A DNA stretch of 64,000 bases from NCBI RefSeq assembly GCF_036010325.1, contig NZ_CP108549.1, positions 1,364,001 through 1,428,000 on the forward strand. Direction: 5' to 3'. Made by a program: the position numbers and the translations under genes. The notes below the pieces were generated by a model. It saw only the letters and a program-made list of their open reading frames with translations, was not told where the DNA came from and ran no database searches. The stretch comes from Streptomyces sp. NBC_01210. Lineage in GTDB: Bacteria > Actinomycetota > Actinomycetes > Streptomycetales > Streptomycetaceae. Positions 9,890 through 29,288 of the stretch are shown here, one piece after another (position 1 is the first letter of the stretch; each line of letters begins with the position of its first letter).

Positions 9890-11458
9890 TCACGACAGCG
9901 CCCTGCCCACCGCCGACTCCGCCGCGCCCAGCGCCCGGCCGGAGACCACGTACTGGACGGCCCCCTCCATCTCCGGGGCGAGGTACCGGTCCGGGCCCGG
10001 GCCCGGCACCGTCTCGCGCAGACCGTCCCGGACCGCGGCCGTCACCGGCGCCGGGCTCAGCGGCGCACGCAGATCCAGGGCCCGGGCGGCGGTGTACAGC
10101 TCCACGGCGAGGACCCGGCCGAGCCCGTCGAGGGCGCGGCGCAGCTTGCGGGCTGCTGACCAGCCCATGGAGACGTGGTCCTCCTGCATCGCGCTGGAGG
10201 GGATGGAGTCGACGGAGGCCGGGGTGGCGAGCCGCTTCAGCTCGGAGACGACCGCGGCCTGCGTGTACTGGGCGATCATGTGGCCAGAGTCGACACCGGG
10301 GTCGGCCGCCAGGAAGGCGGGCAGGTCGTGGCTGCGGGCCGGATCGAGGGACCGGTCAGTGCGGCGCTCGGCGATCGAGGCGACGTCCGCGACGGAAATA
10401 GCCAGGAAGTCCAGGACGCAGGCGAGGGGAGCCCCGTGGAAGTTGCCGTTGCTCGCCAGTCTCCCGTCCAGCGTCACGACGGGGTTGTCTATCGCGCTGG
10501 CCAGCTCCCGGGCTGCGACCAGTTCGGCGTGCGCCAGGGTGTCTCGCGCGGCCCCGTGCACCTGGGGCGTACAGCGCAGCGAGTACGCGTCCTGCACGCA
10601 GCCGCACTCCTGCCGCCGATGGCTCGCGATCACCTCCGAACCGGCAAGCAGCGCCCGCAGGTTGGCGGCGCTCTCGGCCTGTCCCGGGTGCGGGCGGAGC
10701 GCCTGGAGGTCGCCCGCGAAGACGGCGTCCGTGCCGAGCTGGGCCTCGACGCTCATCGCGGCGGCCACGTCGGCGCTGCGCAGCAGCAGGCGCAGGTCGT
10801 GCAGAGCGAGCACCAGCATGCCGAGCATGCCGTCGGTGCCGTTGATGAGGGCGAGCCCTTCCTTCTCCGCGAGGGCGACGGGCGCGATGCCGGCGGCGGC
10901 GAGCGCCACGGCGGTCGGCACGAGCGTGCCGTCGGCGTCCCGTGCCTCACCCTCGCCCATCACCGCGAGGGCGCAGTGCGCCAACGGGGCGAGGTCGCCG
11001 GAACAGCCCAGCGAACCGTATTCGCGGACGACCGGTGTGATGCCCGCGTTGAGGAGCCCGGCGTAGGCCTGCGCGGTCTGCGGGCGTACCCCGGTGCGGC
11101 CGGTGGCCAGGGTCGAGAGCCGCAGCAGCATCAGGGCGCGGACGACCTCGCGTTCGACCTCCGGACCCGACCCGGCGGCGTGTGAGCGGACCAGGCTGCG
11201 CTGCAGGACGGTACGGGCGTCGGCCGGGACGTGCCGCCCCGCCAAGGCGCCGAATCCGGTCGAGACGCCGTAATGCGGCTCGGAGTCGCTGAGGAGGCCC
11301 TCGATCACCTCGCGGCCGCGTGTGATCTCTTTCAGCGCCTCGGGCGACAGGACGACCGGGGTGCCGTCACGTGCCACGGACACGACGTCGGCGGCGGACA
11401 GCGGACCGACCCCCATCACCACGGCCCCCAGACCCACAGCCCCTGTCACTACAGTCAC
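9890..11458 (-). CDS. Histidine ammonia-lyase (cluster copy)
   Basis: The 522-residue protein of the MIO-dependent aromatic amino acid lyase family would turn L-histidine into urocanate and ammonia. The prosthetic-group triad is Cys152-Ser153-Gly154 (GSLGCSGDLAPLAH), the Cys variant I recall from streptomycete HutH rather than the common Ala-Ser-Gly. The catalytic Tyr63 lies in HYGVSTGFG. The RSHAAG at 91-96 has the Ser-His pair of histidine-specific enzymes, unlike tyrosine or phenylalanine lyases. GTG 11458 is chosen for its GGGGGAG ribosome site. It is the last gene of the leftward operon, next to ferredoxin and P450, so a role in the product is more likely than histidine catabolism (no hutU/hutI nearby). 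Confidence 0.88.
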   Translation of the reverse strand: MTVVTGAVGLGAVVMGVGPLSAADVVSVARDGTPVVLSPEALKEITRGREVIEGLLSDSEPHYGVSTGFGALAGRHVPADARTVLQRSLVRSHAAGSGPEVEREVVRALMLLRLSTLATGRTGVRPQTAQAYAGLLNAGITPVVREYGSLGCSGDLAPLAHCALAVMGEGEARDADGTLVPTAVALAAAGIAPVALAEKEGLALINGTDGMLGMLVLALHDLRLLLRSADVAAAMSVEAQLGTDAVFAGDLQALRPHPGQAESAANLRALLAGSEVIASHRRQECGCVQDAYSLRCTPQVHGAARDTLAHAELVAARELASAIDNPVVTLDGRLASNGNFHGAPLACVLDFLAISVADVASIAERRTDRSLDPARSHDLPAFLAADPGVDSGHMIAQYTQAAVVSELKRLATPASVDSIPSSAMQEDHVSMGWSAARKLRRALDGLGRVLAVELYTAARALDLRAPLSPAPVTAAVRDGLRETVPGPGPDRYLAPEMEGAVQYVVSGRALGAAESAVGRALS

Positions 11459-11462
11459 GTGC

Positions 11463-11657
11463 TCACTCCCCCAGGTATGCGATGGCTGCTGCAGGGCAGA
11501 GGTCGGCGGCCTCGGCGGCCTCCTGGTCGTCCATGTCCGGGGCTGCGCCGGGGACGAGGCACACCAGGCCGTCATCGCCCTGCTCGAAGAGGTCCGGCGC
11601 GATCCGGACGCAGTTGCCCGAGCCCACACAGCGCTCGCGGTCCACGGTGATCCGCAT
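11463..11657 (-). CDS. Ferredoxin, [3Fe-4S] P450-partner type
   Basis: A 64-residue ferredoxin with cysteines in CVGSGNC (10 and 16) and in the C-terminal LCPAAAI. The middle cysteine position of the 4Fe type is replaced, the usual pattern of single-cluster ferredoxins that feed electrons to actinobacterial P450s. The ATG is 1 base after the P450 stop codon, so the two are coupled and almost certainly work together. Confidence 0.9.
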   Translation of the reverse strand: MRITVDRERCVGSGNCVRIAPDLFEQGDDGLVCLVPGAAPDMDDQEAAEAADLCPAAAIAYLGE

Positions 11658-11658
11658 G

Positions 11659-12870
11659 TCACCACTCCACGGGGAGGGCACTGACGCCGAAGACCAGCCC
11701 CTGGCGCACCGGCACCTCGTCCAGCGGGACGGCGAGCCGCAGTTTCGGGAACCGGTCGAAGAGCTTGCGGAGCGCGACCTCGACGTCCAGGCGCGCGAGG
11801 TTCTGTCCGACGCACTGGTGGACGCCGAAACCGAAGGCGAGGTGGTTGCGGACGCGCCGCCGGAGGTCGAGTTCGCGGGGCAGCTCGTAGACGCCGGGGT
11901 CGCGGTTGGCCGCGGCGTTGAGGAGGACGACTCCGTCCCCGGCCCGGATGACGACGCCCGACGTCTCGATGTCGGTGGTGGCGACGCGGACGATGCCCCC
12001 GGTCAAGGACAGGAATCGCAGGAGCTCCTCGACCGCGTCGGACCACGGCACCTCGCCGCCGAGCAGTCGGGCCAGTTCGTCCTCGTGCGTAAGCAGGGTC
12101 AGGACGGCGAGCGCGATGGTGCTGACGGTGACGTCCTGCCCCGCGACGATGAGGACCGTGCCGTAGTGCACGAACTGCTCGGGCGTCAGCGTCCCGGCCC
12201 GCACCTGAGCGATCAGGTCGTCGAGGAGACCGCTGCCGTCGGCGGGCTGGTCCAGCTTGCGCTCGTAGACGGACCGCAGATAGTCCTCGAGGACCGGCAC
12301 GCGGTCGAAGTGCCCGTAGAGGGCGTCGTCCAGCCGGCTCCGGTCGTCCTCCGGGATGCCGAGCATTTCCGTCATGCTCGCGGTGACCAGGGGACGGACG
12401 TACGAGCCGACCAGGTCGGCGGCCGCACCGCGCGGCCCCGCCGCCAGCGCTTCCAGCCGCTCGTCCGCGACCGCTTCGAGCGCGGGCCGCCAGGTCTGGA
12501 TCCGCTTGAGCGAGAGGCTGGGTGACAGGGCGCGGCGCTGCTCGGTGTGCAGCGGCGGGTCAGTGCGCAGGAGGGCCCTCATCGAGGGGTGGCGGTCCGG
12601 GCGGCCGAGCACCAGGAGCCGTGCAAGCTTGGGGAACTCGGCCTTGTCCCGGTCGACGGTGAGCCGTTCGTCGGCGAGCAAGGAGCGAACGACGCCGTGG
12701 CCGGTCACCGCCCAGATCTCCCGCCCGTCGTAGAGCCGGATCCTCGTCACGGAACCGCGGTCCCGCAGGTCCTCGTAGGCTCGGGGCGGGTGGTACGGGC
12801 ACTCCCGGGTCAGTGGGAGACCGGGCAGAGCGGTGTCCTGGACGGGGGTTTCCTGATCGGCGTTGTCCAT
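11659..12870 (-). CDS. Cytochrome P450
   Basis: This 403-residue bacterial P450 is soluble and lacks a membrane anchor. The heme loop FGFGVHQCVGQNLAR has the cysteine ligand, and EELLRF is the K-helix ExxR motif. The I-helix reads AGQDVT: the conserved acid is present but the usual next Thr is Val, with Thr one place later, as in some P450s that do not follow standard proton relay. The start ATG has AGGAAG five bases upstream. It is a tailoring oxidase of the cluster; the substrate may be carrier-bound. Confidence 0.93.
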   Translation of the reverse strand: MDNADQETPVQDTALPGLPLTRECPYHPPRAYEDLRDRGSVTRIRLYDGREIWAVTGHGVVRSLLADERLTVDRDKAEFPKLARLLVLGRPDRHPSMRALLRTDPPLHTEQRRALSPSLSLKRIQTWRPALEAVADERLEALAAGPRGAAADLVGSYVRPLVTASMTEMLGIPEDDRSRLDDALYGHFDRVPVLEDYLRSVYERKLDQPADGSGLLDDLIAQVRAGTLTPEQFVHYGTVLIVAGQDVTVSTIALAVLTLLTHEDELARLLGGEVPWSDAVEELLRFLSLTGGIVRVATTDIETSGVVIRAGDGVVLLNAAANRDPGVYELPRELDLRRRVRNHLAFGFGVHQCVGQNLARLDVEVALRKLFDRFPKLRLAVPLDEVPVRQGLVFGVSALPVEW

Positions 12871-12872
12871 CG

Positions 12873-14861
12873 TCACTTCCTGGAAGGGGCGGTCGGCGAG
12901 AGTTTCGCGGCCACGGCCCGCAGCGGCAGCGGCCCCAGCAGGTCGGCCGGGATGATCCCGGTGAACCCGGCTTCGTCGAGGTGGTCGATCACCGCAGGCG
13001 CGAGGGCCGCCCTGCCGCCCGCCGGGAGGTAGGGAGTGGCCATGTCGGCCGTGAGGCCGGGGCACCGCGCGGTGACGGCGGCGGCCAGCGCCTCCTCCCG
13101 CGGGGTGCCCGGGGGCGTGGGCCGGCGGGGGAAACCGTCGCCCTCGGCCGTCACCCCGGCCTCGGCCCAGGCTTGTGGGGTGGGGTGTACGGGCGCGTCC
13201 GAGCACACCACGAACCGGTGCGGCAGGACCAGGGACGGGTTGCTGACCAGGGCGGCCGCCAGCTGGGTCCGGAGCCCCGTCGGCGTAACCTCACCGGCCG
13301 CGTAGGCGACGAGCCGGGGGCGGCCGTCCTCGCCCGCCTCGGCGAAGACCCCGGCCGCCGTGACGCCGGGGAGCCCGGCGAGCAGCGCGGTACACGCCTC
13401 GGTATCGGCCCACGCGTGGTCGACCTGGACCCAGCCGCGGCCGAACTGCCGTCGTGGCAGAGCGAGTCGGTCCTGGACCTGACCCAGGGGGGCCATCATG
13501 GGGACAGTGCCGTCGGCCCAGCCGGAGACCAGCGTTCCGATGCCGTGCAAGGCCCGCACGATGCGGTCGCCGTCCGTCACGGAGGTGTGACCGTGCATCG
13601 ACAGGGTGACGCCGTCCTCGCCGGTCTCCACCGCGAGGTACAGGTCGGCGCTGTTGTCCTGCCAGTCGATGGGGATCTTCTCGATGACGAAGTCATCCGT
13701 GACGCTCCCGACGAGGGCCGGCGCTTCGGTGTCGATCTCCGGTCTGGCCACGGCGAAGTAGTTGTAAGTGACGCCGATCCTCAGGCTCATGCCGCGTTCG
13801 TGGCCCGCGCGGGCCCGTTCCTCGATCATCTCCAGCGAGGAATAGCGCGCGAAGCGCTGCGCCGCGACCACGGACCGGAAGACCTTGGTCAGCAGGGATT
13901 CCGAGGTGTCCGCCGCCGCCACGTCGAAGACGACGAGCGCGGGCTGGAAGAAGCAGCCGACCGCCGACGACAGCATCGGGTCCGCCCTGTTGGCCGTGTC
14001 CATGGACACGACGCACCGGTCGCTGCCCGACAGCGCCGCGAGGGCGGTGCCGAACGCGGCGAGGTAGACCATGCCCGGGGCGATCCTGCGCTCGGCGGCG
14101 AGGCGTTCGGCGGCGAGCGCGAGGCGCAGGGACTTGAGCGTCACGCGCTCGTACGGGCTCGGCGGCGTGAAGCCCTCGAAGTGGCCCACGGGCGCGGGCC
14201 GGAAGTCGGGGAACATGCCCTGTGGGATCGACCGGTAGCGGTCGCGCCAGTACGTACGGACACGTTCCCGGTAGCGGGCCCGCTCGGCGGAGTGGTCCAA
14301 CTCGGCCTGTTCACGAGGCTGTCGAGCATCGGGCAGCGGTACGTCGTCGTGACCCGCCTCGATCAGGGCGTGGAACGAGCGCTCCAGGACCAGCCAGCTC
14401 TGCCCGTCGATGGCGCTGTGGATCGCCGCCGCCACCACCCAGGCGGCCCCGCCCGGCTCCCTGATCAGGGCGAACCGGGCCGGCCGGTCCCAGGCGGGGT
14501 CGAAGGGGCGCGCGGCGAGGCGCTCCGTCACTGAGGAGATGTCCGAGGCGTCGCCCTCCGTGCGCAGGTCGAAGGTGACCGGCCACGGCGGGCGGACCGC
14601 CTGGCCGGGGGTGCCCGTCTCGGCGAGGAGGAAGTTGGTGCGTAGCGACTCGTACCGGTGTACCAGCGCGGAGAGCGCCGAGAGGACGGCCTCGTCGGCA
14701 ACGTCGGCGTCAAGCCGCCAGGGCCGGGTGATCTTCACACAGTCCCGGGTGGCACCATAGGCCGGAACGTCGAAGTAGAGGAACCAGTAGTGTTCCTGGC
14801 CCCAGAGCATCGGCGCCCAGATGGTCTCGGAGTTCTCCGCTGGCATGGTCTCGCTGTTCAC
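12873..14861 (-). CDS. Stand-alone condensation-domain protein with degenerate C-terminal domains
   Basis: The 662-residue protein has an NRPS condensation fold in residues 1 to about 450. The catalytic motif is AAIHSAIDGQS: the second His (148) and Asp152-Gly153 are kept, while the first His of HHxxxDG is Ile. Residues about 490-590 (LVAYAAGEV then LVSNPSLVLPHRFVV) look like the C-terminal subdomain of an adenylation domain. The last 50 residues look like a carrier domain whose phosphopantetheine Ser is lost (GGRAAL instead of GGDSL). It probably forms an amide between two carrier-bound acyl groups. GTG 14861 is chosen because of GGGAG upstream and the overlap with the previous stop. Confidence 0.8.
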   Translation of the reverse strand: MNSETMPAENSETIWAPMLWGQEHYWFLYFDVPAYGATRDCVKITRPWRLDADVADEAVLSALSALVHRYESLRTNFLLAETGTPGQAVRPPWPVTFDLRTEGDASDISSVTERLAARPFDPAWDRPARFALIREPGGAAWVVAAAIHSAIDGQSWLVLERSFHALIEAGHDDVPLPDARQPREQAELDHSAERARYRERVRTYWRDRYRSIPQGMFPDFRPAPVGHFEGFTPPSPYERVTLKSLRLALAAERLAAERRIAPGMVYLAAFGTALAALSGSDRCVVSMDTANRADPMLSSAVGCFFQPALVVFDVAAADTSESLLTKVFRSVVAAQRFARYSSLEMIEERARAGHERGMSLRIGVTYNYFAVARPEIDTEAPALVGSVTDDFVIEKIPIDWQDNSADLYLAVETGEDGVTLSMHGHTSVTDGDRIVRALHGIGTLVSGWADGTVPMMAPLGQVQDRLALPRRQFGRGWVQVDHAWADTEACTALLAGLPGVTAAGVFAEAGEDGRPRLVAYAAGEVTPTGLRTQLAAALVSNPSLVLPHRFVVCSDAPVHPTPQAWAEAGVTAEGDGFPRRPTPPGTPREEALAAAVTARCPGLTADMATPYLPAGGRAALAPAVIDHLDEAGFTGIIPADLLGPLPLRAVAAKLSPTAPSRK

Positions 14862-15577
14862 TGCGGCTCCCATTGTCGAACCGTCATATGTGCCGGTGCC
14901 GTGCCGTGCAGGGCCAAGGCCGCCCGGTAACCCGGCGGTGCGGGCACGTCCCGTACCGCCCAGTCGCCCGCCACGCCGCCACTCGGGTCGTACGCCCGGA
15001 CGGCACCGGAGGCTCCCGGTGCCCCTGAGACGGAGAACCCGAGGCCGCGCCCGAGCATGTGCGTCCCCGCCGCCTTGGTGCACGCCTCCTTCCGCGTCCA
15101 CATGGACAGGAACACGCCAGCCCGGTCGGCGGCCGGAGCCGCCGCCACCAGGGCGCTCTCATCGGCCGTGAAGAACCGCCGGCTCAGTGCCAGGAAGTCC
15201 CTGCCCTCCCGCGGCCGGTCGAGGTCCACGCCGATGTCCCGGGGGCCCGTCACGGCGAGCAGTGCCACCCCGCCGGAGTGGGACAGGCTGAACCGCAGGG
15301 CGGATTCGTGTCCGGCGATATACGGCTTCCCCCAGCGTCCGGTCCGCCAGATGAGGCGCGCAGCGTCCTCTGCCAGGTACCGGCCGAGGACGCGGCGCGC
15401 CGCGGCGCGCGCGGTCTCGAAGCGGCTGCGGAGGACCGGATCGGTGATACGTACCGACCGGCTCCGCTCCTCCTCGCTCAGAGCCGCCCGTAGCCGGCTA
15501 CCCGCCCGGGCTGTGGCTGCGTCGAGGTCGAGCTGCCAGACGTGCACGGTGTCGGCCCTCACCACGGCGCTCAACAC
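14858..15577 (-). CDS. 4'-phosphopantetheinyl transferase, Sfp type
   Basis: A 239-residue two-lobed enzyme that converts apo carrier proteins to holo form using CoA. Family motifs are FSLSHSGG near residue 97, GVDLDR (Asp118, Asp120, magnesium ligands) and WTRKEACTKAAG at 160-171. It overlaps the MATE gene upstream by 7 bases and the condensation gene downstream (GTGA). It would activate the ACP (19660-19941) and PCP (23759-24064). The exact start among several close GTG codons is uncertain. Confidence 0.9.
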   Translation of the reverse strand: MLSAVVRADTVHVWQLDLDAATARAGSRLRAALSEEERSRSVRITDPVLRSRFETARAAARRVLGRYLAEDAARLIWRTGRWGKPYIAGHESALRFSLSHSGGVALLAVTGPRDIGVDLDRPREGRDFLALSRRFFTADESALVAAAPAADRAGVFLSMWTRKEACTKAAGTHMLGRGLGFSVSGAPGASGAVRAYDPSGGVAGDWAVRDVPAPPGYRAALALHGTAPAHMTVRQWEPQ

Positions 15578-16974
15578 GCGGCCGCCTGCGTCGACTTGTG
15601 GTCGGCGACGAGCTTGCGTACGAAGCCTGCCGCGGCCGCCAGCGCGATGGCGCTTACCAGGTTGGAGATGGCCACGGTCCAATAGAGCCCGTCAGGGGTG
15701 TCGAGCACAGCGCAGGCCCAGCTGCCCGCGACGACGTTCCCGCCGAAGTAGACGAGGTTCAGCACGACCGCGCGGCGGCCTCCGCCAATGTGTTCGAGGA
15801 GTGTCAGGGCGACCAGGACGGGGCCCTCGACCGCGTAGGTCAACCCCACGATGGCCAGGTACCTGCTGGCCGCCACTGCCGCGTCGGCTTCGGCGTCGCC
15901 GATCATGACGTGGGCGATGGCGTCCCGGCCGAAGAACGTCACGACGGCGATGACCGCGAAGACGGCGAAGGACAGCGCGATTCCGCTGCGGTACGTCGGC
16001 ACCAAGCGTTCGTACGAGCCCGCGCCACGCTGCTGGTTGACGATGATCCCGGTGGCCGAGCCCAATACGAGCGCGGGCATGATGATGAGGGTCTGCACGG
16101 CCGACGCGGTGGCGAACCCCGCGACGGTCGCCTCGCCAAAAGGCCCCAGCACCCAGATCAGGGCGAGACTGTAGAGGGAGATGATGGCGAGAGTCGCGCC
16201 CACTGGAAGGCCCACGGACTTGATGTGTCCGAGCACGTCGCGGCGCCAGGGCGCGCGCTGTCCCTGCTGCCAGAGCCCGGCGCGGCGCAGCAGCCACAGG
16301 CCCGCTAGCGTGCCGGCGGCGGCGCAGGCGGCGGCCGCGATCGGCAGGCTGTGCATCCCAAGTCCGGTGCCCAGGCCGAGCCAGGCCACCAGGACGATCT
16401 CGATGGCGGAGCTGACCAGGGTCAGGACGAGCGCCTGCCGGGCGAACCCGAAGCCGCGCAGCGCGGACGCGCACAGCGCGGGGCCGAAGCCCAGCAGGCT
16501 GACCACGGACATCCAGCGCAGGAACCAGACGAAGTCCTGCCGGGCGGAACCGGGCACGTTGAAGAGGTCGGCGAAGCCGGACGCGCCCAAGGAGAGCACC
16601 GCGGTGAGCGCCACACCGAGGATCACCCAGACCTTCACCATGCTCACGGTGATCGGGAAGACGTCTTCCGGTGTCTCGCGGCCCTTGCTGAGCGAGCAGG
16701 CGACCTGGGCACTGACTGCGAGAGCCGCGTTGACCGCGCTGAACACCATGCCCAGGGGGAGGAAGAGCGAGCGCACGTACAGGGCCTGACCACCCATGCG
16801 CCCGACCATCGCGACCAGGATCAGCATGGTGAGGTAGCCGACGATCTCCCCCATGACCATGGGGACGGCGAGACGCCCGATCTGTGTCGAGCCCCGGACC
16901 GGGCGCGCGTCGCCGGTGCCCGGGTCCGCCGTGCTTTCCCCCGCCTTCGTAGTCTCCCGCTGGTCGTCAGCCAT
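15571..16974 (-). CDS. MATE-family efflux transporter
   Basis: The 467-residue protein has about twelve membrane helices in two similar halves, of the multidrug and toxin extrusion family (cation-driven antiporters). Residues 1-30 are polar and cytoplasmic. Its position inside the biosynthetic operon, overlapping the genes on both sides, marks it as the likely exporter or self-resistance pump for the product. The ATG at 16974 overlaps the end of the acyl-CoA dehydrogenase gene by 8 bases. Confidence 0.88.
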   Translation of the reverse strand: MADDQRETTKAGESTADPGTGDARPVRGSTQIGRLAVPMVMGEIVGYLTMLILVAMVGRMGGQALYVRSLFLPLGMVFSAVNAALAVSAQVACSLSKGRETPEDVFPITVSMVKVWVILGVALTAVLSLGASGFADLFNVPGSARQDFVWFLRWMSVVSLLGFGPALCASALRGFGFARQALVLTLVSSAIEIVLVAWLGLGTGLGMHSLPIAAAACAAAGTLAGLWLLRRAGLWQQGQRAPWRRDVLGHIKSVGLPVGATLAIISLYSLALIWVLGPFGEATVAGFATASAVQTLIIMPALVLGSATGIIVNQQRGAGSYERLVPTYRSGIALSFAVFAVIAVVTFFGRDAIAHVMIGDAEADAAVAASRYLAIVGLTYAVEGPVLVALTLLEHIGGGRRAVVLNLVYFGGNVVAGSWACAVLDTPDGLYWTVAISNLVSAIALAAAAGFVRKLVADHKSTQAAAC

Positions 16975-19663: not shown

Positions 19664-19941
19664 TGTTCGGACTCGAGCTGCCTGGCCGCGTAGTCCGCGA
19701 GCGACCTGACCGTCGCGAAGTCGCTCGGCTCCAGTGTCTCGGGGTCAAACTCGAACCCCAGCTCGTCCTCCAGCTTCATGAGCAGTTCGAGGATGCTGGT
19801 CGAGTCAAAGCCCAGGTCGTCGAAGAGCCTGGTGTCCGCCGTGATGGAGTCCGCCTCGCGGTTGCGCATCTCGGCGAGTGCCGCGATCACGGTCTGCGTG
19901 ATGCGAGCCGGGGCGGTGAAGGGCTCTGCGTGGGTACCCAT
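19660..19941 (-). CDS. Acyl carrier protein
   Basis: A 93-residue carrier protein with the phosphopantetheine site at Ser47 in DDLGFDSTSILELL, followed by an acidic helix II. The ATG at 19941 has GGAG 11 bases upstream. Its neighbours are an ATP-grasp ligase and a PLP decarboxylase in the same operon. That trio matches BtrI (ACP), BtrJ and BtrK of butirosin biosynthesis, where glutamate is attached to the ACP and decarboxylated. It probably carries the amino-acid-derived building block. Confidence 0.9.
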   Translation of the reverse strand: MGTHAEPFTAPARITQTVIAALAEMRNREADSITADTRLFDDLGFDSTSILELLMKLEDELGFEFDPETLEPSDFATVRSLADYAARQLESEQ

Positions 19942-20032
19942 GGTGGCGTGCGCTCCTTTGGATCTCTGTGTCTCTGAATCGGTCGCTGGACGGCGACGTC
20001 GTTGTCCGACGGCCGCTCGGCCGCCGTGCCGG

Positions 20033-21334
20033 TTATGTCGCCGCTCCGGCCGTATCACCGGACGCTCCGGTGAAGTCGTAGCTTCGCTGGCGTACGAGCA
20101 GGTCCTCCGGCCGGTCCCGCTCCCGTACCAGGAGGGGCCGTCCCTCGTACACCAGTACCTCGGCCGGGTGGCCGTGGCTGAGGAAGTGGACGGGGGAGGC
20201 GCTCGGTCCGTACGCGCCGGACTGGAGCACGCCGACCAGGTCGCCGGTCTCCAGGGACGGGAGCCGGACCTTCTTGCCGAGCGTGTCGTTGGGGGTGCAC
20301 AGCGGACCGGCGATGTTCCACACCTCGTCCGCCTCCGCGCCGGTGCGGCTCAGTAGCTGGATGGGGAAGTTGCGCTTGACGAAGGAGCCGACGCCGACGG
20401 CCGCCATGTGGTGATGCGTACCGCCGTCGACGATGGCGAACCTCTCGCCCCGGGACTCCTTGAGATAGCGGACCCGCGTGACGTACACGCCGGCCGGCGC
20501 CGTGAGGTACCGGCCCAGCTCCATGATGATGCGCGTCTTGGGACGGCCCGCGGTGAACTTCTCGATCAGCGGGTTGAGGAGCGCGGTGAGGACGGAGGGA
20601 TCCAGGTCACGCTCGCCCTCGAAGTACGGCACGCCCAACCCGCCGCCGATGTCGACGAGTTCGAGAGGAAAGCCGAGGGCATCAGCGATCTGCTCGGCGG
20701 CCTCGAAGATCCGCTCAGTGTGCTCGGCGACGACCTGTTCGTCAAGCACGCGGGTGCCCATGTAGATATGGATGCCGACCAGGCGCACCGAGAGGAAGCG
20801 CTCCGCCAGGTCGGGCTGCGCGAGCAGCGTTTCCTGGTCGATGCCGAACTGCCTGCCGGTGCCGCTCATCACGAGCTTCGCGCCCTTGACCGAGAAGCTC
20901 GGGTTGACCCGGAGCGCCACCCTCGCGGTGACCCCGCGTTCGGCGGCGAGCCGGTCCACCAGCGCCAGTTCGTCCAGGGACTCGCATACGATGGCCGCGA
21001 TCCCCGCGTCGAGGCAGGCCGTGAGCTCCTCCTCGCTCTTGCCGGGCCCGGGGAAGACGATGTCCTCGGCCGCGACCCCGGCCCGGCCGGCCGTGGTCAG
21101 CTCGGCCAGCGAGGAGACCTCCGCGCGCGCTCCCAGAGAATGCAGCAGCGCGCAGATCGCGATGTTGGGGTTGGCCTTCAGGGAGTAGAAGATCTCCACG
21201 GCGGGGTGCAGCAGGTCCCGCAGGCCGCTGTACTGCCGGGTGACGGTCTCGGCGTCGTAGACATACAGCGGGGTTCCGAACTCCGCCGCCAGATCCGATA
21301 CGGGCACGCCCTGGATGTGGAATTCAGCGGCCAT
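20033..21334 (-). CDS. PLP-dependent decarboxylase, diaminopimelate-decarboxylase fold (BtrK-like)
   Basis: The 433-residue fold-type III decarboxylase has the PLP-binding Lys53 in FYSLKANPN, the glycine loop GGGLG at 230-234, ELGRY at 272-276 and the cross-subunit catalytic Cys346 in PLCTPNDTL. Lysine synthesis enzymes share this fold. The neighbouring ACP and ATP-grasp genes instead suggest that it decarboxylates an aminoacyl-ACP, as BtrK does with glutamyl-ACP. ATG 21334 has AGGAG upstream and overlaps the end of the ATP-grasp gene. Substrate inferred, not shown. Confidence 0.85.
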   Translation of the reverse strand: MAAEFHIQGVPVSDLAAEFGTPLYVYDAETVTRQYSGLRDLLHPAVEIFYSLKANPNIAICALLHSLGARAEVSSLAELTTAGRAGVAAEDIVFPGPGKSEEELTACLDAGIAAIVCESLDELALVDRLAAERGVTARVALRVNPSFSVKGAKLVMSGTGRQFGIDQETLLAQPDLAERFLSVRLVGIHIYMGTRVLDEQVVAEHTERIFEAAEQIADALGFPLELVDIGGGLGVPYFEGERDLDPSVLTALLNPLIEKFTAGRPKTRIIMELGRYLTAPAGVYVTRVRYLKESRGERFAIVDGGTHHHMAAVGVGSFVKRNFPIQLLSRTGAEADEVWNIAGPLCTPNDTLGKKVRLPSLETGDLVGVLQSGAYGPSASPVHFLSHGHPAEVLVYEGRPLLVRERDRPEDLLVRQRSYDFTGASGDTAGAAT

Positions 21335-22727
21335 GGCGGTTCTCCTCCGTGAGGGCCGCGACGCGGGCGGCGATCTGCTGGTCGAGCGAGGCGAGACGGT
21401 CGTCGCTGTCGGCCACGACAATCCCGTAGAGGCGGCCGTCGAAGGTCCGCGGCCCGTCGTCCTGGAGCCGGTGCTCGGCGGCGTTGACGGTGGCGTAGTT
21501 GTTGACGATGAGACCGGCGGGGGTGCCGGGGGCCAGCAGCAGGTCCTGGAGGAGGTCCGCGAGCCGGGCGAACGGCAGACGGCCGCGCAGGGTGACGGGG
21601 TACTGGGTGGCCAGCGCGACGCGGCCTTGCTGAATCCACCGTTCCCGGACGCGTTCCTGGTACGTCGACATGTTGTTGCGTGCGTTGATCTCGACGATCG
21701 GGTAGAGCCCGCCGTCCGGATCCACCATCGCGTCGACACCGACCGGTCCGAAGTACCCGTCGCTGTGGAGCCGGGCACCGATCAGGCGCGACGCTTCGGC
21801 GAGTTCGGCCCGCTGGGCGTCGTCGAGGCGGGCCGGGATGCGGTGACCCTTGTGCACTCCGGCGTCGGTGACGGCCTCCCGGACGAAGTCGAAGGTGACA
21901 GCGCTGTCCTGGTCGACGGTGAACTGGTAGTTCAGATTGGTCTGCTTGGCCACCCACGTCTCGATGACCATGTTCACCCGGTCGTCCCCGCTGCGCTCCG
22001 CGCGACGGGCGATCTTCCTGGCGACACGCTCCAGGGAGGTCCGTTCGGACAGGACGAGCAGGCCCTTGCCGGAGACGCCGTACGAGTCCTTCGCAACGAC
22101 CGTCCCACCCCGGTCGAGCAGTTCACCGGCCTCCGCCACGGCGCTGTGGAGCTCGTCCACCGACCGGCAGATCCAGCCGCGGGGCTGGCGCAGTCCGAGG
22201 GTGCTGGCGACCTCACGGCTGTACGTCTTCCCGTTGACCGTCTTGCACACCTGCGCGGATGGCCCCGCGAGCCGCAGTCCGGCGAGTTCGGCGACGCGCT
22301 CCTCGCGCTCCGATACCCCGTGCGGCCACAGGACGGGACTCGGCACGAGCGTGCCGAGCTCCTTGAGGAGACCGGGGTCCGCGAGCACGTCCTCGGTGAC
22401 CGTCAGCTGCGGATCCTGGGCGACGGGCGTGAGGATGTGCGGAAGCTCGAAGCCCAGTGCCACGAGATGCGCCAAATGGTCGGCGTCCGGGGCGGACTTG
22501 AGGATCACCCGGTCCCGCGCACCGGCGAGCAGCAGGCAGAACTCGTCCATGCGGTTCGCGATCTCCCTGGTTGCGCTCACCGCGATCCGGGGCAGCCCCG
22601 GCTCGTTCTCCCCCCACTGGTTCTCCACCTCGAAATTCCCGAGCAAAACCATGGGCGTGTCGAGTGCCCCGGCGAGAACGGATCGGATGTGGGTAGACCA
22701 GGCCGGCGTGGATGACGGTTGCATCAT
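21324..22727 (-). CDS. ATP-grasp ligase (BtrJ-like, amino acid:ACP ligase candidate)
   Basis: The 467-residue protein has an ATP-grasp core in its second half. VVAKDSYGVSGKGLLVL is the flexible ATP-binding loop, YPIVEINARNNMS the metal-binding Glu and Asn, and VGVDAMVD a further acidic motif. ATP-grasp enzymes make acyl-phosphate intermediates. In butirosin BtrJ the acceptor is the thiol of an ACP. Order and overlap with the decarboxylase and ACP support that role here. The start is uncertain: ATG 22727 is used, but TTG 22739, which overlaps the previous stop codon, is also possible. Confidence 0.8.
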   Translation of the reverse strand: MMQPSSTPAWSTHIRSVLAGALDTPMVLLGNFEVENQWGENEPGLPRIAVSATREIANRMDEFCLLLAGARDRVILKSAPDADHLAHLVALGFELPHILTPVAQDPQLTVTEDVLADPGLLKELGTLVPSPVLWPHGVSEREERVAELAGLRLAGPSAQVCKTVNGKTYSREVASTLGLRQPRGWICRSVDELHSAVAEAGELLDRGGTVVAKDSYGVSGKGLLVLSERTSLERVARKIARRAERSGDDRVNMVIETWVAKQTNLNYQFTVDQDSAVTFDFVREAVTDAGVHKGHRIPARLDDAQRAELAEASRLIGARLHSDGYFGPVGVDAMVDPDGGLYPIVEINARNNMSTYQERVRERWIQQGRVALATQYPVTLRGRLPFARLADLLQDLLLAPGTPAGLIVNNYATVNAAEHRLQDDGPRTFDGRLYGIVVADSDDRLASLDQQIAARVAALTEENRHGR

Positions 22728-22735
22728 GCTCGCTT

Positions 22736-23671
22736 TCAATGCTCGAGGACCATTGCCGAGAACGTGGCGCCGAGCCCGACGGAAGTCATCAGATATCGCT
22801 GCCCGGGCCGCAGAATGCCCTTCTCGCGCGCAGTCAGATAGTTGAGGAATGCGTCGGCACCGAAGCAGTGACCGATCTCCGGGAGGTTGTCCAGGAAGAG
22901 CCGGTCCTTTCCCCGGATACCCAATTTGTTCAGCACCGGCAGCCAGGACATCCGATTGACGTTGTGCGGCAGGACGAGGTCGATGTCCCGTACCTGAAGT
23001 CCTGCACTGTCCACAGCGGCGCGCACCACATCCGCCAGTGCCGCCGGATAGGTTTCCTGGAACTCGACCGCCGATTCGGGGGACATGTACATACCGTCCT
23101 CGAATTCGCCTCGGATCTGCGTGGCATATCCCAGGACGCGGTCGCGCGGGCCGCCGAGGCCGACCAGGGCGGCCGCGGCGGACTCCCCCATCACCCCGGT
23201 GTCGGGAATCACTCGGGCGCTGGCGGTGAACACCTTCTCGCCCATCAGGACGAGGGCGAGGCCGTCCGGATCACCGTCCGCGGCAAGCAGCCGACCGGCG
23301 AGGTCAACGGCGAGGAGGCCGGACGCACAGGCGTGCTGGGTCACACAGAAGGCCTGCGCGTGACGCAGCCCCAGCTCGTCCCGGACCTCGTGCACGGTGC
23401 TCACAGGATAGGGGGCGGCCACCGGCATCGTACGGGCCTGGAGGACGTACCGTACGCGGTGTTCATTACCCTTCAGCGACTCCAGCCGCTCGGCCGCACC
23501 AAGAAGTTGGAGGGCCGGATCATCCTTCTCCGTGACCCGCACCTCCCTGAATCCGAAATACCGCTCGTACAAGTTGATGCGCGGCTCGGGGACCTGGTTC
23601 TGCTGGAGAAACTCCCGTACGGGAACACGCCGGTCGGGCCAGTAACCCGCGACTTCTCTAAGCGCTGTCAA
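22736..23671 (-). CDS. Ketosynthase III family protein (active-site Cys present)
   Basis: A 311-residue FabH-like enzyme. The nucleophile is Cys115 in QHACASG, with His236 in LPHNVNR. The third position, usually Asn in FabH (GNTS), reads GHCFGADA, so the triad would be Cys-His-His rather than Cys-His-Asn. That suggests an acyltransferase or unusual condensation instead of ordinary chain initiation. No ATG or GTG fits. TTG at 23671 opens the conserved region (TALREVAGYWPDRRVPV), and everything further upstream in the frame is antisense to the PCP gene. Confidence 0.8.
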   Translation of the reverse strand: MTALREVAGYWPDRRVPVREFLQQNQVPEPRINLYERYFGFREVRVTEKDDPALQLLGAAERLESLKGNEHRVRYVLQARTMPVAAPYPVSTVHEVRDELGLRHAQAFCVTQHACASGLLAVDLAGRLLAADGDPDGLALVLMGEKVFTASARVIPDTGVMGESAAAALVGLGGPRDRVLGYATQIRGEFEDGMYMSPESAVEFQETYPAALADVVRAAVDSAGLQVRDIDLVLPHNVNRMSWLPVLNKLGIRGKDRLFLDNLPEIGHCFGADAFLNYLTAREKGILRPGQRYLMTSVGLGATFSAMVLEH

Positions 23672-23745
23672 CGGAATCTGCTTACCGGCTCGGCATATTG
23701 GCGCCGCCCACTCGGGACTTGCTGTTCCTCCCGGACCGGATCGCC

Positions 23746-23751
23746 TAGTAT
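23746..23751 (+). promoter_or_regulatory. -10 box of the lone PCP gene
   Basis: TAGTAT lies 7 bases before the ATG at 23759, giving a leaderless mRNA. No clear -35. Confidence 0.45.
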
Positions 23752-23758
23752 TGCGGAC

Positions 23759-24064
23759 ATGGTCAACGGAGCAGCCCACGAAGCAGTCAACAGCGTCGGT
23801 CGCATATGCCGCCTGGTCGGCGAGGAAATGGGAGACATTCTCACCTGCCCGCCCTTGGCACCGGACGAGGATTTCCTCGCGGCTGGCGGCGACTCCCTGC
23901 ACGCCGTCGAACTGGTCTCGCGGCTCGTGGCACGCTGGCAGCCGGCCGAGGGGGATGCCGCCGACCGCCTGCAGGCGGCCTTGGTGACCGCTGTCTTCGA
24001 CGACCCGAGCCCGGGCCGTCTCGCGGCGGTGATCGTGGCCGGAGGTACCCCCCTCGCCCCCTGA
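23759..24064 (+). CDS. Stand-alone peptidyl carrier protein
   Basis: A 101-residue carrier protein with the phosphopantetheine Ser46 in AAGGDSLHAVELVSRL. It is encoded on the plus strand between two leftward biosynthetic genes, so it interrupts the operon and has its own promoter. The adjacent acyl-AMP ligase (24084-25523), whose 3' end faces its 3' end 19 bases away, is the natural loading enzyme. The condensation protein would use its cargo. Confidence 0.9.
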   Translation: MVNGAAHEAVNSVGRICRLVGEEMGDILTCPPLAPDEDFLAAGGDSLHAVELVSRLVARWQPAEGDAADRLQAALVTAVFDDPSPGRLAAVIVAGGTPLAP

Positions 24065-24083
24065 CCGGGACGGGGCTGGCCGG

Positions 24084-25523
24084 TCACGGCTGGCCCTCGG
24101 CCGGCGTGCCGGCGGGCGGCAGCCTGCACACCCGCTTCACCGCCATGAGGTCCGGTTTCCCCAGCGCCGTACGCGGCAGCTCGGGCAGGACATGGACGCG
24201 GTGCGGCACCTCGTAAGCCGTGAGTCTGCCGCGGCAGTGCGCCAGCAGGTCCGCCACCCCCGTCCGCGGATCGCGGAGGACGACGGCCGCATGCACCGAC
24301 TCCTCGCCGTCCTCCTCATGGCCGAAGACATGCGCCTCCGCCACATCGTCGTGCTCGCCGAGGACGCCGCTCACCAGGCCGGGATTGACCTTGCGGCCGC
24401 CGACGTTGATGAACGTGCTCTTGCGTGCCAGGACCGTGAGGTCGCCCCCGGCGTCGATCCTGACCAGGTCGCCGGTGTCGTACAGACCGTCCTCGTCCAG
24501 TACGTCACCGCCTCCCAGGTAGCCGGAGAACAGCGTCGAGGTGCGGACGAGGAGCCTGCCGGCACCCGGGTCCCCGTCGCCGTCGGCGGACTCGACCTTC
24601 CAGGTAACGGAGCGGTGAATCCGGCCCGCTGAGCCCTCGGGCCACGGGGTGGCGCGGTCGTACTGGCACGCGATCACCCCGGCTTCCGTACTGCCGTAGA
24701 TCTGGTGGACGGCCCTGCCGAACGCCCGCTCCGCCCGTGCTCGCGTCTCCTGCGGCAGCGGCCCGCCCGACGACAGCAGGGCGCGCAGCGCCGATGCGCT
24801 CCCGGCGGGCCGGGGAGCCATGCCGAGGATGCGGTAGATCATGGGTGTGCCGAGCAGCACCGTCGCGCCCTCGTCGATGGCCGTGTGCACCGCGCTCACG
24901 CTGAAACGGGGCATGGTGACGATCTGCGCCCCGCTCACGAGGGCACCGGCGAGCAGGCCCATCATGCCGAAGGAGTGGGACATGGGGATCGGGCCGAGGA
25001 TGTCGTCCGCCGTGTAGCCGTAGGTCTCGCGGTAGATGCGGCCGCCGTGCTCGATGTTGCCGAGGTCCTGGCGAACGATCCGGGGTTCGCCGGTGGAGCC
25101 GGAGGTCATCCCGAGGATCGCGGGGTTCCGCTCCGGCGCGCGGAGGGGGCCGCCACCGTCCGAGAGCACGTCGGCGTACGCCAGGACGCCGCTGCCCCGG
25201 TCGGGCCCGATCACCTGCCGCGCACCGATCCGCCGCGCGACGGACCGCTCCTCGTCCAGATGGGAGCTGCCCGCCTCCAGACACAGCAGGTCCACCGACG
25301 CGGCCGTGAGCCCCAGGAACACCGCGAGGCTCTCGGCGGAGTTGTCGAGCACCAGGACGGCGGGCGCGTTCCGCTTGCAGAGGCGACCGGCCCGGTCGGC
25401 CACCCCGGCCGCCATGTCACGCAGTCGGCGCCAGTTCGTGCTGTCCCACCGGCCGTTGGTGAGCACCCGTACGGACGGGGCGTCCGGGCGGGTGGCCGCG
25501 TGCCGTTCCACCTGCCGATGCAT
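24084..25523 (-). CDS. Acyl/aminoacyl-AMP ligase (stand-alone adenylation enzyme)
   Basis: The 479-residue class I adenylate-forming enzyme activates a carboxylic acid with ATP and passes it to a carrier thiol. Motifs are GMTSGSTGEPR near 138-147 (P-loop, with Arg in place of the usual final Lys), YGSTEAG, LYDTGDLVRI, and the catalytic Lys in RTALGKPDL near the C-terminus. It is shorter than an NRPS adenylation domain and closer to aryl or acyl ligases. A urocanate or other acid is a possible substrate, but the specificity cannot be read by eye. Its ATG overlaps the stop of the SDR gene. Confidence 0.85.
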   Translation of the reverse strand: MHRQVERHAATRPDAPSVRVLTNGRWDSTNWRRLRDMAAGVADRAGRLCKRNAPAVLVLDNSAESLAVFLGLTAASVDLLCLEAGSSHLDEERSVARRIGARQVIGPDRGSGVLAYADVLSDGGGPLRAPERNPAILGMTSGSTGEPRIVRQDLGNIEHGGRIYRETYGYTADDILGPIPMSHSFGMMGLLAGALVSGAQIVTMPRFSVSAVHTAIDEGATVLLGTPMIYRILGMAPRPAGSASALRALLSSGGPLPQETRARAERAFGRAVHQIYGSTEAGVIACQYDRATPWPEGSAGRIHRSVTWKVESADGDGDPGAGRLLVRTSTLFSGYLGGGDVLDEDGLYDTGDLVRIDAGGDLTVLARKSTFINVGGRKVNPGLVSGVLGEHDDVAEAHVFGHEEDGEESVHAAVVLRDPRTGVADLLAHCRGRLTAYEVPHRVHVLPELPRTALGKPDLMAVKRVCRLPPAGTPAEGQP

Positions 25524-26350
25524 CAGTCGAGCACCTCAAGTCCCCTTGTGTGGGCGCCGTTCTCCGGCGGTGCCGCCGGTCCGCCGCCGACCGACAGCAG
25601 CCCCAGGGGCAACCCGCCGTCCACGTGGATCGTCTGGCCGGTGATGTACGAGGCGCCGTCCCCGGCGAGAAACGCGAGGGCCGCGGCTGCGTCGTCCGGG
25701 CGTCCGGTCCGGCGTACCGGGGTGGCCGCGGCGACGGACGCCGCCCGACGAGTGCCGTCGCCTCGGGGGCCCGGAGTGCCCGTGGTCATCGGAGTCTCGA
25801 TGAATCCGGGGGCCACTGCGTTCACCGTGATGCCGAACGGGCCGAGCTCCACGGCGAGCGCGCGGGTCAGCCCCTCCAGACCGGCCTTCGCAGCCGCGTA
25901 GTTGGCCTGGCCGTGGCTGCCGAGCGCGGAGACGCTGGACAGGTTGAGGATCCGCCCCCAGCGGGCGCGCACCATGTGCTTCTGCACGGCGCGGGCGCAG
26001 AGGAAGGCCCCGCGCAGGTTCACCGAGTGGACCACGTCCCAGTCCAGCTCGGACATGGTGTGCAGGGTGCTGTCCCGGATGACGCCCGCGATGTTGACGA
26101 GGACGTGCACCCCGCCGAACTCCCCGGCCACGGCCTTCACCATCGCCTTCACCTGGCGTGGGTCCGCGACGTCGCACGCCATGGCCAGCGCCCTGCCGCC
26201 CTCGGCGGTGATCTCCGCAGCGAGTCGGTCCACGCCCGCGACATCGATGTCGGCGAGGGCCACTCCGAGGCCCTCGCGAGCCATACGGCGGGCCGTGGCC
26301 GCCCCGATTCCTCCGGCGGCCCCCGTCACCACGGCTATTCGCTCGTTCAC
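25523..26350 (-). CDS. Short-chain dehydrogenase/reductase (FabG-like)
   Basis: A 275-residue Rossmann-fold oxidoreductase. TGAAGGIG (10-17) binds the cofactor, with NIAG, the catalytic Ser in NLSSVSA and YAAAKAG for Tyr and Lys. It would reduce a beta-keto thioester or oxidise an alcohol during assembly of the product. It is the first gene of the leftward operon, with promoter candidate 26500-26529. The C-terminal 30 residues (Gly/Pro rich) extend beyond FabG. Confidence 0.88.
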   Translation of the reverse strand: MNERIAVVTGAAGGIGAATARRMAREGLGVALADIDVAGVDRLAAEITAEGGRALAMACDVADPRQVKAMVKAVAGEFGGVHVLVNIAGVIRDSTLHTMSELDWDVVHSVNLRGAFLCARAVQKHMVRARWGRILNLSSVSALGSHGQANYAAAKAGLEGLTRALAVELGPFGITVNAVAPGFIETPMTTGTPGPRGDGTRRAASVAAATPVRRTGRPDDAAAALAFLAGDGASYITGQTIHVDGGLPLGLLSVGGGPAAPPENGAHTRGLEVLD

Positions 26351-27865: not shown

Positions 27866-27903
27866 CCACCGGCACGTTGCCGATCGAAGAGGAGGGGGAC
27901 CTC

Positions 27904-29238: not shown

Positions 29239-29288
29239 CGGGAGCCGCCGGTCAGGACGGAATGGGTGGCCATGAGGAGGGAAACAAC

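What the first reader, a model, noticed from the sequence alone, without database searches (positions are those of the whole stretch)
9890..26350. Biosynthetic cluster combining BtrI/J/K-type aminoacyl-ACP chemistry with histidine ammonia-lyase and a stand-alone condensation protein
ATP-grasp ligase, DAPDC-fold decarboxylase and ACP in a row match the butirosin logic of loading an amino acid on an ACP and decarboxylating it. Added here are a histidine ammonia-lyase (urocanate source), acyl-AMP ligase plus lone PCP, two ketosynthase III proteins, two acyl-CoA dehydrogenase-like proteins, P450/ferredoxin and MATE export. I know no described product with this set. A plausible scheme: urocanate or an acyl group on the PCP is joined by the condensation protein to an amine or acyl group on the ACP.
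Basis: partly seen in the sequence, partly recalled or inferred. Interest (0 to 1): 0.75.

Follow-up and report, generated by a model that had tools for sequence, protein, structure and literature searches.

The report
Histidine-fed enamide glycoside gene cluster
This Streptomyces DNA holds a rare, real gene cluster that most likely makes a small sugar-decorated compound by joining a histidine-derived acid to a beta-alanine unit and turning the link into an unsaturated amide, using a gene cassette otherwise seen with lipopeptide synthetases; the product is unknown and has to be tested.

Summary
The genes described are all present, mostly as one tightly coupled operon (9890-26350). Two corrections change the reading. 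(1) The cluster is larger: two glycosyltransferases, a nucleotide-sugar dehydrogenase and an epimerase (26789-31363) lie beside it in S. silaceus and S. olivaceoviridis too, at 76-88% identity, so the product is probably a glycoside. (2) The ATP-grasp/decarboxylase/ACP trio belongs to a seven-gene cassette (KS III, ATP-grasp, BtrK-like decarboxylase, ACP, Cys-less KS, short and full acyl-CoA dehydrogenases), complete in 19 of 22 other loci. Ten of 22 have NRPS-like genes nearby; in two of these, diaminopropionate genes sit between cassette and NRPS, as enamidonin/autucedine lipopeptides need. The cassette therefore most likely makes N-acyl-dehydro-beta-alanine (from aspartate), not butirosin-type GABA. 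The ammonia-lyase keeps the histidine-lyase motifs and groups with lyases of histidine-utilisation operons; urocanate is its likely product. Best model: urocanate is loaded by the AMP ligase on the PCP, moved to the beta-alanyl unit by the KS III pair, desaturated, transferred by the stand-alone condensation protein, then oxidised and glycosylated. Acyl identity, acceptor and product are inferred. New variant of a known kind.

The parts
9890..11458 (-). histidine ammonia-lyase (HAL), CSG MIO motif, likely urocanate source
   Evidence: hutH equivalog 626.7 bits over cut-off 539.15; motifs; trees
11463..11657 (-). ferredoxin, 64 aa, probable partner of the P450
   Evidence: Pfam Fer4_15/Fer4_13
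11659..12870 (-). cytochrome P450
   Evidence: PF00067; NCBIfam only below cut-offs
12873..14861 (-). stand-alone condensation protein with HxxxDG motif and a C-terminal extension that reads like an adenylation subdomain plus a carrier domain without its serine (GGR/GGQ)
   Evidence: PF00668; alignment; motif table; model of moderate quality and Foldseek
14858..15577 (-). 4'-phosphopantetheinyl transferase
   Evidence: PF01648, HetI-like below cut-off
15571..16974 (-). MATE family exporter
   Evidence: PF01554
16967..18124 (-). acyl-CoA dehydrogenase (ACAD2), catalytic Glu kept
   Evidence: PF00441/PF02770; alignment; Glu in 20 of 21 rows, Asp in one
18121..18774 (-). short acyl-CoA dehydrogenase-like partner (ACAD1), 217 aa
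   Evidence: PF00441 21.1 bits, cut-off 22.4; family recurs in cassette loci
18758..19663 (-). KAS III-fold protein without catalytic Cys (KS-like)
   Evidence: no Pfam; alignment; model pLDDT 81.5, CorB/MxnB/FabH matches
19660..19941 (-). acyl carrier protein (DLGFDS)
   Evidence: PF00550 48 bits; Ser in 23 of 23 rows
20033..21334 (-). PLP decarboxylase, BtrK-like
   Evidence: PF02784/PF00278; best PDB match BtrK
21324..22727 (-). PreATP-grasp/ATP-grasp protein, probable aminoacyl-ACP ligase
   Evidence: PF18604; PGM1 best PDB match, weak
22736..23671 (-). KS III (Cys115 and His236 kept, third catalytic residue Asn replaced by His268)
   Evidence: PF08541; alignment; counts
23759..24064 (+). 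lone peptidyl carrier protein (GGDSL)
   Evidence: PF00550 29.3 bits over 20.8
24084..25523 (-). AMP-forming acyl ligase
   Evidence: PF00501/PF13193
25523..26350 (-). FabG-like short-chain reductase
   Evidence: PF13561; FabG-type NCBIfam models
26789..27865 (+). GT4-type glycosyltransferase 1 (65% identical to GT2)
   Evidence: PF00534 (longer ORF); conserved neighbour; paralogy
27862..29238 (+). nucleotide-sugar (UDP-glucose type) dehydrogenase
   Evidence: TIGR03026 313.9 over 189.8
29289..30308 (+). GalE-like epimerase/decarboxylase
   Evidence: PF01370 (longer ORF); only distant PDB relatives incl. UDP-glucuronate decarboxylase
30305..31363 (+). GT4-type glycosyltransferase 2
   Evidence: PF00534 (longer ORF); conserved neighbour

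Best explanation
The cluster makes a small glycosylated enamide without any NRPS or PKS megasynthase. Steps: (1) the phosphopantetheinyl transferase activates ACP and PCP; (2) the ATP-grasp enzyme loads aspartate through its side-chain carboxyl on the ACP and the BtrK-like enzyme decarboxylates it to beta-alanyl-ACP; (3) the histidine ammonia-lyase makes urocanate, the AMP ligase loads it on the lone PCP, and the KS III/Cys-less KS pair moves the acyl group to the amine of the ACP-bound unit; (4) the dehydrogenase pair introduces the double bond, before or after acylation, to give N-acyl-3-aminoacryloyl-ACP (dehydro-beta-alanine); (5) the stand-alone condensation protein passes it to a soluble amine or alcohol; (6) P450/ferredoxin and the reductase tailor it, the two glycosyltransferases add sugars made by the dehydrogenase/epimerase, and the MATE protein exports it. 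Shown here: gene content, conserved cassette, conserved motifs, kinship of the lyase with catabolic histidine lyases, conserved glycosylation block. Inferred: every chemical step, above all the acyl identity (3), the acceptor (5) and the sugar.
For: Cassette KS3-ATPgrasp-DAPDC-ACP-KSlike-ACAD1-ACAD2 complete in 19 of 22 other loci (order, families). NRPS-like stretches were found around 10 of 22, 7-21 kb in nine and 2.4 kb in one. At the two loci where I tested the genes between, G015 and G048, they are SbnB and SbnA, above curated cut-offs; [quoted passage not shown] In bolagladin a BtrK-like decarboxylase, an ACP, KAS III homologues and a dehydrogenase are proposed to make dehydro-beta-alanine; deleting bolQ gave the beta-alanine analogue (PMC7756342, passages). 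KS III: Cys and His in 22 of 22 rows, the Asn position His in 22 of 22. In NRPS-less cassettes an acyl donor sits just upstream of KS III: ligase+ACP+dehydrogenases in L073-L075, a PKS in L086 and, by size, L087; here AMP ligase+PCP. Lyase: VRSHAAG, NGNFHGAP and QEDHVSMG identical in 24 of 24 rows; five cluster lyases form a 100/100 clade, six in the larger tree, beside lyases of hut loci. Split: against S. silaceus, S. olivaceoviridis keeps C, P450, MATE, SDR, GT1, dehydrogenase and epimerase equally close to the window (within 3 points, 72-85%), but ten ligase/cassette/PPTase genes are 12-29 points more distant, and it has no lyase on the cluster contig.
Against: No substrate was tested; sequence here does not tell Asp from Glu. 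No NRPS was seen near 12 of 22 cassettes, not all with both flanks read. G048 has Dpr genes and cassette but no ACAD1/ACAD2. The published passages differ on the order of acylation and desaturation. Streptomyces sp. NPDC021093 has the closest ATP-grasp (80%) and the C protein on contigs of one length (1.21 Mb), but no lyase with that contig length is among the 120 listed, so lyase and module may not always go together. The ligase's best PDB relatives are 2-succinylbenzoate, oxalate and malonyl ligases, weakly, which says nothing for urocanate.
Confidence: 0.45

Rival explanations
1. Same dehydro-beta-alanine cassette, but the acyl group on its amine is a fatty acyl from primary metabolism; urocanate on the PCP is a second building block that the condensation protein joins to it.
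For: AutS/OleH is described as possibly taking acyl-CoAs of various chain length (PMC11204786 passage); a stand-alone condensation protein and a second carrier are present.
Against: Ligase and PCP diverge together with the cassette, not with the condensation protein; in NRPS-less relatives the ligase or PKS just upstream of KS III looks like the acyl donor.
Confidence: 0.22
2. One reading: glutamate is loaded and decarboxylated to GABA on the ACP as in butirosin, and the condensation protein joins urocanoyl-PCP to GABA-ACP.
For: Decarboxylase is nearest to BtrK among solved structures; no sequence test made here separates Asp from Glu.
Against: The cassette recurs beside NRPS and Dpr genes expected for dehydro-beta-alanine lipopeptides; it brings a KS III pair and dehydrogenases that GABA loading does not need; the condensation protein is not part of the varying module.
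Confidence: 0.13
3. The ammonia-lyase is a passenger or a local histidine-utilisation gene and urocanate is not in the product.
For: The non-cluster lyase locus scanned by Pfam is catabolic; S. olivaceoviridis makes do without a cluster lyase.
Against: Last gene of a coupled operon, 4 bases behind the ferredoxin gene; kept at 84% behind the P450 gene in S. silaceus; own clade of six rows; no urocanase among the Pfam hits of the cluster; the genome has two other PF00221 genes.
Confidence: 0.12
4. The KS III pair makes a carbon-carbon bond (decarboxylative extension of the beta-alanyl unit) and the reductase acts on the keto group: a short polyketide.
For: A FabG-like reductase is present; KS III fold.
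Against: The Asn of the KAS III triad (its role recalled) is replaced by His in 22 of 22 rows; no malonyl-loading gene among the Pfam hits of the cluster; a related enzyme is described as an acyl ligase.
Confidence: 0.08

Closest known systems
Enamidonin / autucedine / olenamidonin lipopeptide clusters (Streptomyces)
   Same: In G015 the homologous cassette lies beside Dpr genes and an NRPS, as such a cluster needs; N-acyl dehydro-beta-alanine is the expected unit; a 3-oxoacyl-ACP synthase homologue does the acylation (PMC11204786 passage).
   Different: Here no NRPS and no Dpr genes; instead HAL, AMP ligase+PCP, stand-alone condensation protein, P450 and glycosylation genes. The published aut gene table was not seen, so the match is by inference.
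Bolagladin cluster (Burkholderia gladioli)
   Same: BtrK-like decarboxylase, free ACP, KAS III homologues, acyl-CoA dehydrogenase for dehydro-beta-alanine (PMC7756342 passages).
   Different: Bolagladin uses a VinN-like adenylating ligase and an NRPS; here an ATP-grasp protein and a dehydrogenase pair. Sequences were not compared.
Butirosin BtrI/BtrJ/BtrK
   Same: ATP-grasp protein, PLP decarboxylase and ACP in one operon; decarboxylase closest to BtrK in PDB.
   Different: No aminoglycoside genes among the Pfam hits of the cluster; extra KS III pair and dehydrogenases. BtrJ, BtrG and BtrH were not compared.
C-1027 SgcC4/SgcC1/SgcC2/SgcC5 (gene roles recalled)
   Same: MIO enzyme, adenylating enzyme, lone PCP and stand-alone condensation enzyme; SgcC5 is among the matches (4znm).
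   Different: The MIO enzyme here passes the histidine ammonia-lyase model, not the tyrosine aminomutase one (388.3 bits under a cut-off of 501).
Histidine-utilisation (hut) loci of Streptomyces
   Same: Lyases at 78-84% identity with near-identical active-site motifs.
   Different: The one scanned by Pfam sits with urocanase, an arginase-family enzyme, HutD and a permease; none of these is among the Pfam hits of the window cluster.

Membership tests
N-acyl dehydro-beta-alanine (enamidonin/bolagladin-type) cassette | aminoacyl-ACP ligase, BtrK-type decarboxylase, free ACP, KAS III homologue and acyl-CoA dehydrogenase together | tested here: met
   19 of 22 other loci complete
N-acyl dehydro-beta-alanine (enamidonin/bolagladin-type) cassette | homologous cassette stands beside an NRPS with Dpr biosynthesis genes in a relative | tested here: met
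   G015 and G048: SbnB and SbnA above cut-off, NRPS next; G048 lacks the dehydrogenases
N-acyl dehydro-beta-alanine (enamidonin/bolagladin-type) cassette | identity with the published aut genes | not tested
   Org. Lett. 2022 paper and its gene table not held; seen only as a reference in PMC11204786 and PMC12843350
N-acyl dehydro-beta-alanine (enamidonin/bolagladin-type) cassette | product contains 3-aminoacryloyl unit | not testable with these tools
   needs the compound
Enamidonin-type lipopeptide cluster | NRPS in the cluster | tested here: not met
   tblastn with one NRPS query (E 1e-10) hits the window only at 63464-64000
Histidine ammonia-lyase | curated hutH equivalog score and conserved histidine-site and MIO motifs | tested here: met
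   626.7 over 539.15; motifs (which residues bind histidine is recalled)
MIO aminomutase | curated aminomutase score | tested here: not met
   Tyr_2_3_mutase 388.3 under 501
Butirosin AHBA pathway | glutamate loading and GABA-ACP | not testable with these tools
   needs enzyme assay
Butirosin AHBA pathway | BtrK-type decarboxylase | tested here: met
Active KAS III | Cys-His-Asn triad | tested here: not met
   22736-23671: Cys and His kept, Asn position His; 18758-19663: no Cys
NRPS condensation domain | HxxxDG motif and fold | tested here: met
   11 of 11 rows with complete length incl. the window; a twelfth row is a 400-residue piece without the domain start; Foldseek (model mean pLDDT 73, TM-scores about 0.3 by query)

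The most novel reading that the evidence does not exclude
A family of urocanoyl-enamide glycosides in which a histidine-catabolism type lyase was recruited to feed a free-standing, NRPS-independent dehydro-beta-alanine cassette, with the acyl half exchangeable as a block between strains while the glycoside half stays fixed.
Probability: 0.38. Interest if true: 0.72.

Novelty: new variant of a known kind. Interest (0 to 1): 0.56.

Why it matters
The ATP-grasp marker of the cassette was found in about one in fourteen Streptomyces genomes sampled (21 of 295, own included), and the cassette appears with NRPS, with a PKS, with a fatty-acid-type ligase and here with a histidine lyase, so it looks like a general way to build N-acyl enamides. 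If the model holds, it gives a minimal set of free-standing proteins in which N-acylation by a KS III pair and desaturation by a two-gene dehydrogenase can be studied outside a megasynthase, and a bacterial route to urocanoyl products; the one word search made for these listed 13 papers, none bacterial by title.

Tried and rejected
Prolyl/pyrrole-carrier route (RedW/PltE-like dehydrogenase): RedW model only 56.8 bits under a cut-off of 650. Beta-amino-acid (SgcC4-type) route: aminomutase models below cut-off. Hitch-hiking of the flanking sugar genes: rejected, since both S. silaceus and S. olivaceoviridis keep them beside the SDR gene. Idea that 80% HAL identity marks the cluster type: wrong, 12 of 391 other Streptomyces carry such a lyase outside this cluster, in hut-type loci; only the trees separate the two. 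Kasichelin, azaserine and solanimycin papers (passages): not the same system. Literature searches for a described HAL/urocanate cluster listed none by title or abstract start; the library holds open-licence papers only. The plasmid collection held condensation proteins under 60% identity only; phage and E. coli collections were not searched. GT2 of S. silaceus was dropped from the identity comparison because my fetch ended inside it (the 64% row is the GT1 paralogue); the p value printed in that call includes this row and is not used. The ACP line had one row and was redone. One search printed only the twelve commonest forms of each motif; the full counts are.


Full report
1. What is there. 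Pfam and NCBIfam confirm the genes of the finding. The window lies at C1:1364001-1428000 of a 9.2-Mb genome, of the genus Streptomyces to judge by the named nearest proteins. Reading down the minus strand: SDR, AMP ligase, (PCP on the plus strand), KS III, ATP-grasp, decarboxylase, ACP, Cys-less KS, ACAD1, ACAD2, MATE, phosphopantetheinyl transferase, condensation protein, P450, ferredoxin, histidine ammonia-lyase. With the starts I chose by eye 11 of the 12 junctions from KS III to the lyase are overlaps or gaps of 1-8 bases; the one before the ACP is 91 bases. An ISL3-type transposase gene lies to the left (7105-8520).

2. The cluster is larger. In S. olivaceoviridis (L045) the C, P450, MATE and SDR genes are followed by GT1, nucleotide-sugar dehydrogenase, epimerase and GT2, as in the window at 26789-31363. 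In S. silaceus the cluster is split over two contigs; the one with the SDR gene (L048) shows the same four sugar genes beside it, the other (L032) holds ACP to lyase. Identities to the window are 76-88% (GT2 of S. silaceus seen only in part). GT1 and GT2 are 65% identical to each other. S. olivaceoviridis has further sugar genes, among them a PseC/ArnB-like aminotransferase. The whole cluster is rare: no condensation protein match at E 1e-100 in 391 other Streptomyces genomes. The protein search listed 11 proteins of 55-76% identity besides the window's own, one of them a 400-residue piece; the nine that bear a name are Streptomyces.

3. The cassette. The ATP-grasp gene is matched at E 1e-60 in 21 of 295 Streptomyces genomes, own included. 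I read the loci of all 20 others plus the second copy in S. olivaceoviridis (L049) and a S. decoyicus plasmid (L093), 22 in all. By homology clustering all 22 have ATP-grasp, decarboxylase and ACP; 21 have KS III and KS-like; 19 have both dehydrogenases (in L086 the short dehydrogenase is placed by clustering alone, Pfam names no family for it). The three exceptions are L079 (no dehydrogenases), L084 (contig ends) and L088 (no KS or dehydrogenases). NRPS-like stretches were found around 10 of 22: L049/50, L076, L077, L079, L080, L081, L082, L085 and L093 with 7 kb or more, L083 with 2.4 kb; for several of the other 12 only one flank was read. An OCD-family search of 12 genomes put a match right beside the cassette in G015 and G048; in G207 one lies about 41 kb away. 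NCBIfam names the genes at G015 and G048 SbnB and SbnA (2,3-diaminopropionate), above cut-off at both. The G015 NRPS has four carrier motifs and five HHxxxDG motifs; the G048 frame read stops at 2641 residues with two carrier motifs. [quoted passage not shown] In bolagladin the decarboxylase, ACP, KAS III and dehydrogenase logic was proposed, with acylation before desaturation, and bolQ deletion gave the beta-alanine analogue (PMC7756342, passages). I therefore read the cassette as an N-acyl dehydro-beta-alanine maker, with an ATP-grasp enzyme in place of the VinN-like ligase. The Org. Lett. 2022 autucedine paper itself was not seen.

4. Residues. Among rows scoring over 150 bits, KS III keeps Cys and His in 22 of 22, and the Asn of the triad is His in 22 of 22; ACAD2 keeps the catalytic Glu in 20 of 21 (Asp in L037); the decarboxylase keeps the PLP lysine motif in 25 of 25; the ACP (rows over 40 bits) its serine in 23 of 23 (roles of the residues recalled). 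The KS-like protein has no Cys at the nucleophile position in 14 rows (position taken from the weak match; rows); its model (pLDDT 81.5) matches CorB, MxnB and FabH enzymes first, with TM-scores of 0.5-0.6 and rmsd of 8-10. A KS III plus dead KS III pair recalls PqsC/PqsB (from memory). The condensation protein keeps HxxxDG in 11 of 11 full rows; behind it the sequence reads like an adenylation subdomain and a carrier domain whose GGxS is GGR (10) or GGQ (1). That this is a dead carrier is my reading of the alignment: Pfam does not call it, and the model is moderate there.

5. The lyase. It scores above the curated hutH cut-off and below every aminomutase cut-off. All 61 genomes sampled have a lyase match; every one outside the window is 63-67% identical. 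Lyases at 79-83% occur in 12 of 391 other genomes. I scanned one of these loci by Pfam: urocanase, arginase-family enzyme, HutD, amino acid permease and IclR/GntR regulators. By homology the urocanase-type gene recurs in 9 of 12 loci, the arginase-type in 8 and the HutD-type in 6, within the 12-20 kb read. In a 24-row tree the lyases of the window, S. silaceus, S. arenae, S. marianii and NPDC047017 form a 100/100 clade, its place among the hut-type lyases unresolved. In a 140-row tree one more (NPDC052114) joins (support 1.0), and the six sit beside 125 others that hold all 12 hut-type rows (support 0.88), with two database rows outside. So the lyase is a histidine lyase related to the catabolic type, with no urocanase among the cluster's Pfam hits to remove its product.

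6. Two halves. Window to S. silaceus and window to S. olivaceoviridis identities differ by under 3 points for C, P450, MATE, SDR, GT1, dehydrogenase and epimerase (7 genes), but by 12-29 points for AMP ligase, PCP, KS III, ATP-grasp, decarboxylase, ACP, KS-like, ACAD1, ACAD2 and PPTase (10 genes; S. silaceus decarboxylase only 48% covered, GT2 left out). Ferredoxin was not found in S. silaceus by this search. S. olivaceoviridis has no lyase on the cluster contig. With only two comparison strains, the acyl/beta-alanine half seems to be exchanged, or to diverge, as a block while the other half stays. In NRPS-less cassettes of other species the gene set upstream of KS III differs: an AMP ligase with ACP and dehydrogenases (L073 by Pfam; L074 and L075 by homology and, for the L074 ligase, Pfam) or a PKS with KS, KR, DH and AT-ACP (L086; L087 by size), again with MATE, PPTase and a stand-alone condensation protein behind the cassette in L073, L086 and L087. 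By position the window's AMP ligase and PCP take the donor's place.

7. Mechanism and doubts. The scheme in Best explanation follows. The weakest links are the acyl identity and the acceptor. NPDC021093 has the nearest ATP-grasp and a condensation protein but no lyase of that contig length in the listing of 120. G048 shows that Dpr-NRPS clusters can carry the cassette without dehydrogenases beside it. The epimerase could be a UDP-glucuronate decarboxylase or an epimerase; PDB relatives are distant.

8. Verdict. A real, rare, coherent cluster. The cassette is a known kind; the combination with histidine lyase, free-standing condensation protein and glycosylation block is new to me, and searches of the open library listed no description of it.

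Noticed in passing
window 7105-8520 (-): ISL3-type transposase gene to the left of the cluster.
   Followed up: no
window 63464-64000: NRPS-like stretch at the right end of the window: perhaps another cluster begins there.
   Followed up: no
L163 and 11 similar loci (L164-L174): A second, accessory type of histidine lyase in 12 of 391 other Streptomyces, in hut-type loci, besides the 63-67% lyase seen in every one of 61 sampled genomes.
   Followed up: partly
L086 11978-18623, L087 12310-19015: The enamide cassette directly behind a PKS-like protein (KS, KR, DH; separate AT-ACP; L087 by size only) with stand-alone condensation protein and MATE exporter: another cluster type without NRPS found nearby.
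   Followed up: partly
L090 5608-8849 (similar genes in L091, L092): More distant cassettes with an AurF-like N-oxygenase and an LCM-type methyltransferase upstream.
   Followed up: no
G000:C1:3793773-3795191: Third aromatic amino acid lyase gene of the same genome, only 35% identical to the cluster lyase.
   Followed up: no
L046 1075-15119 (S. olivaceoviridis): Extra aminosugar-type genes (PseC/ArnB-like aminotransferase, Zn-alcohol dehydrogenase, second nucleotide-sugar dehydrogenase, aldehyde dehydrogenase, nucleotidyltransferase) inside the related cluster.
   Followed up: partly
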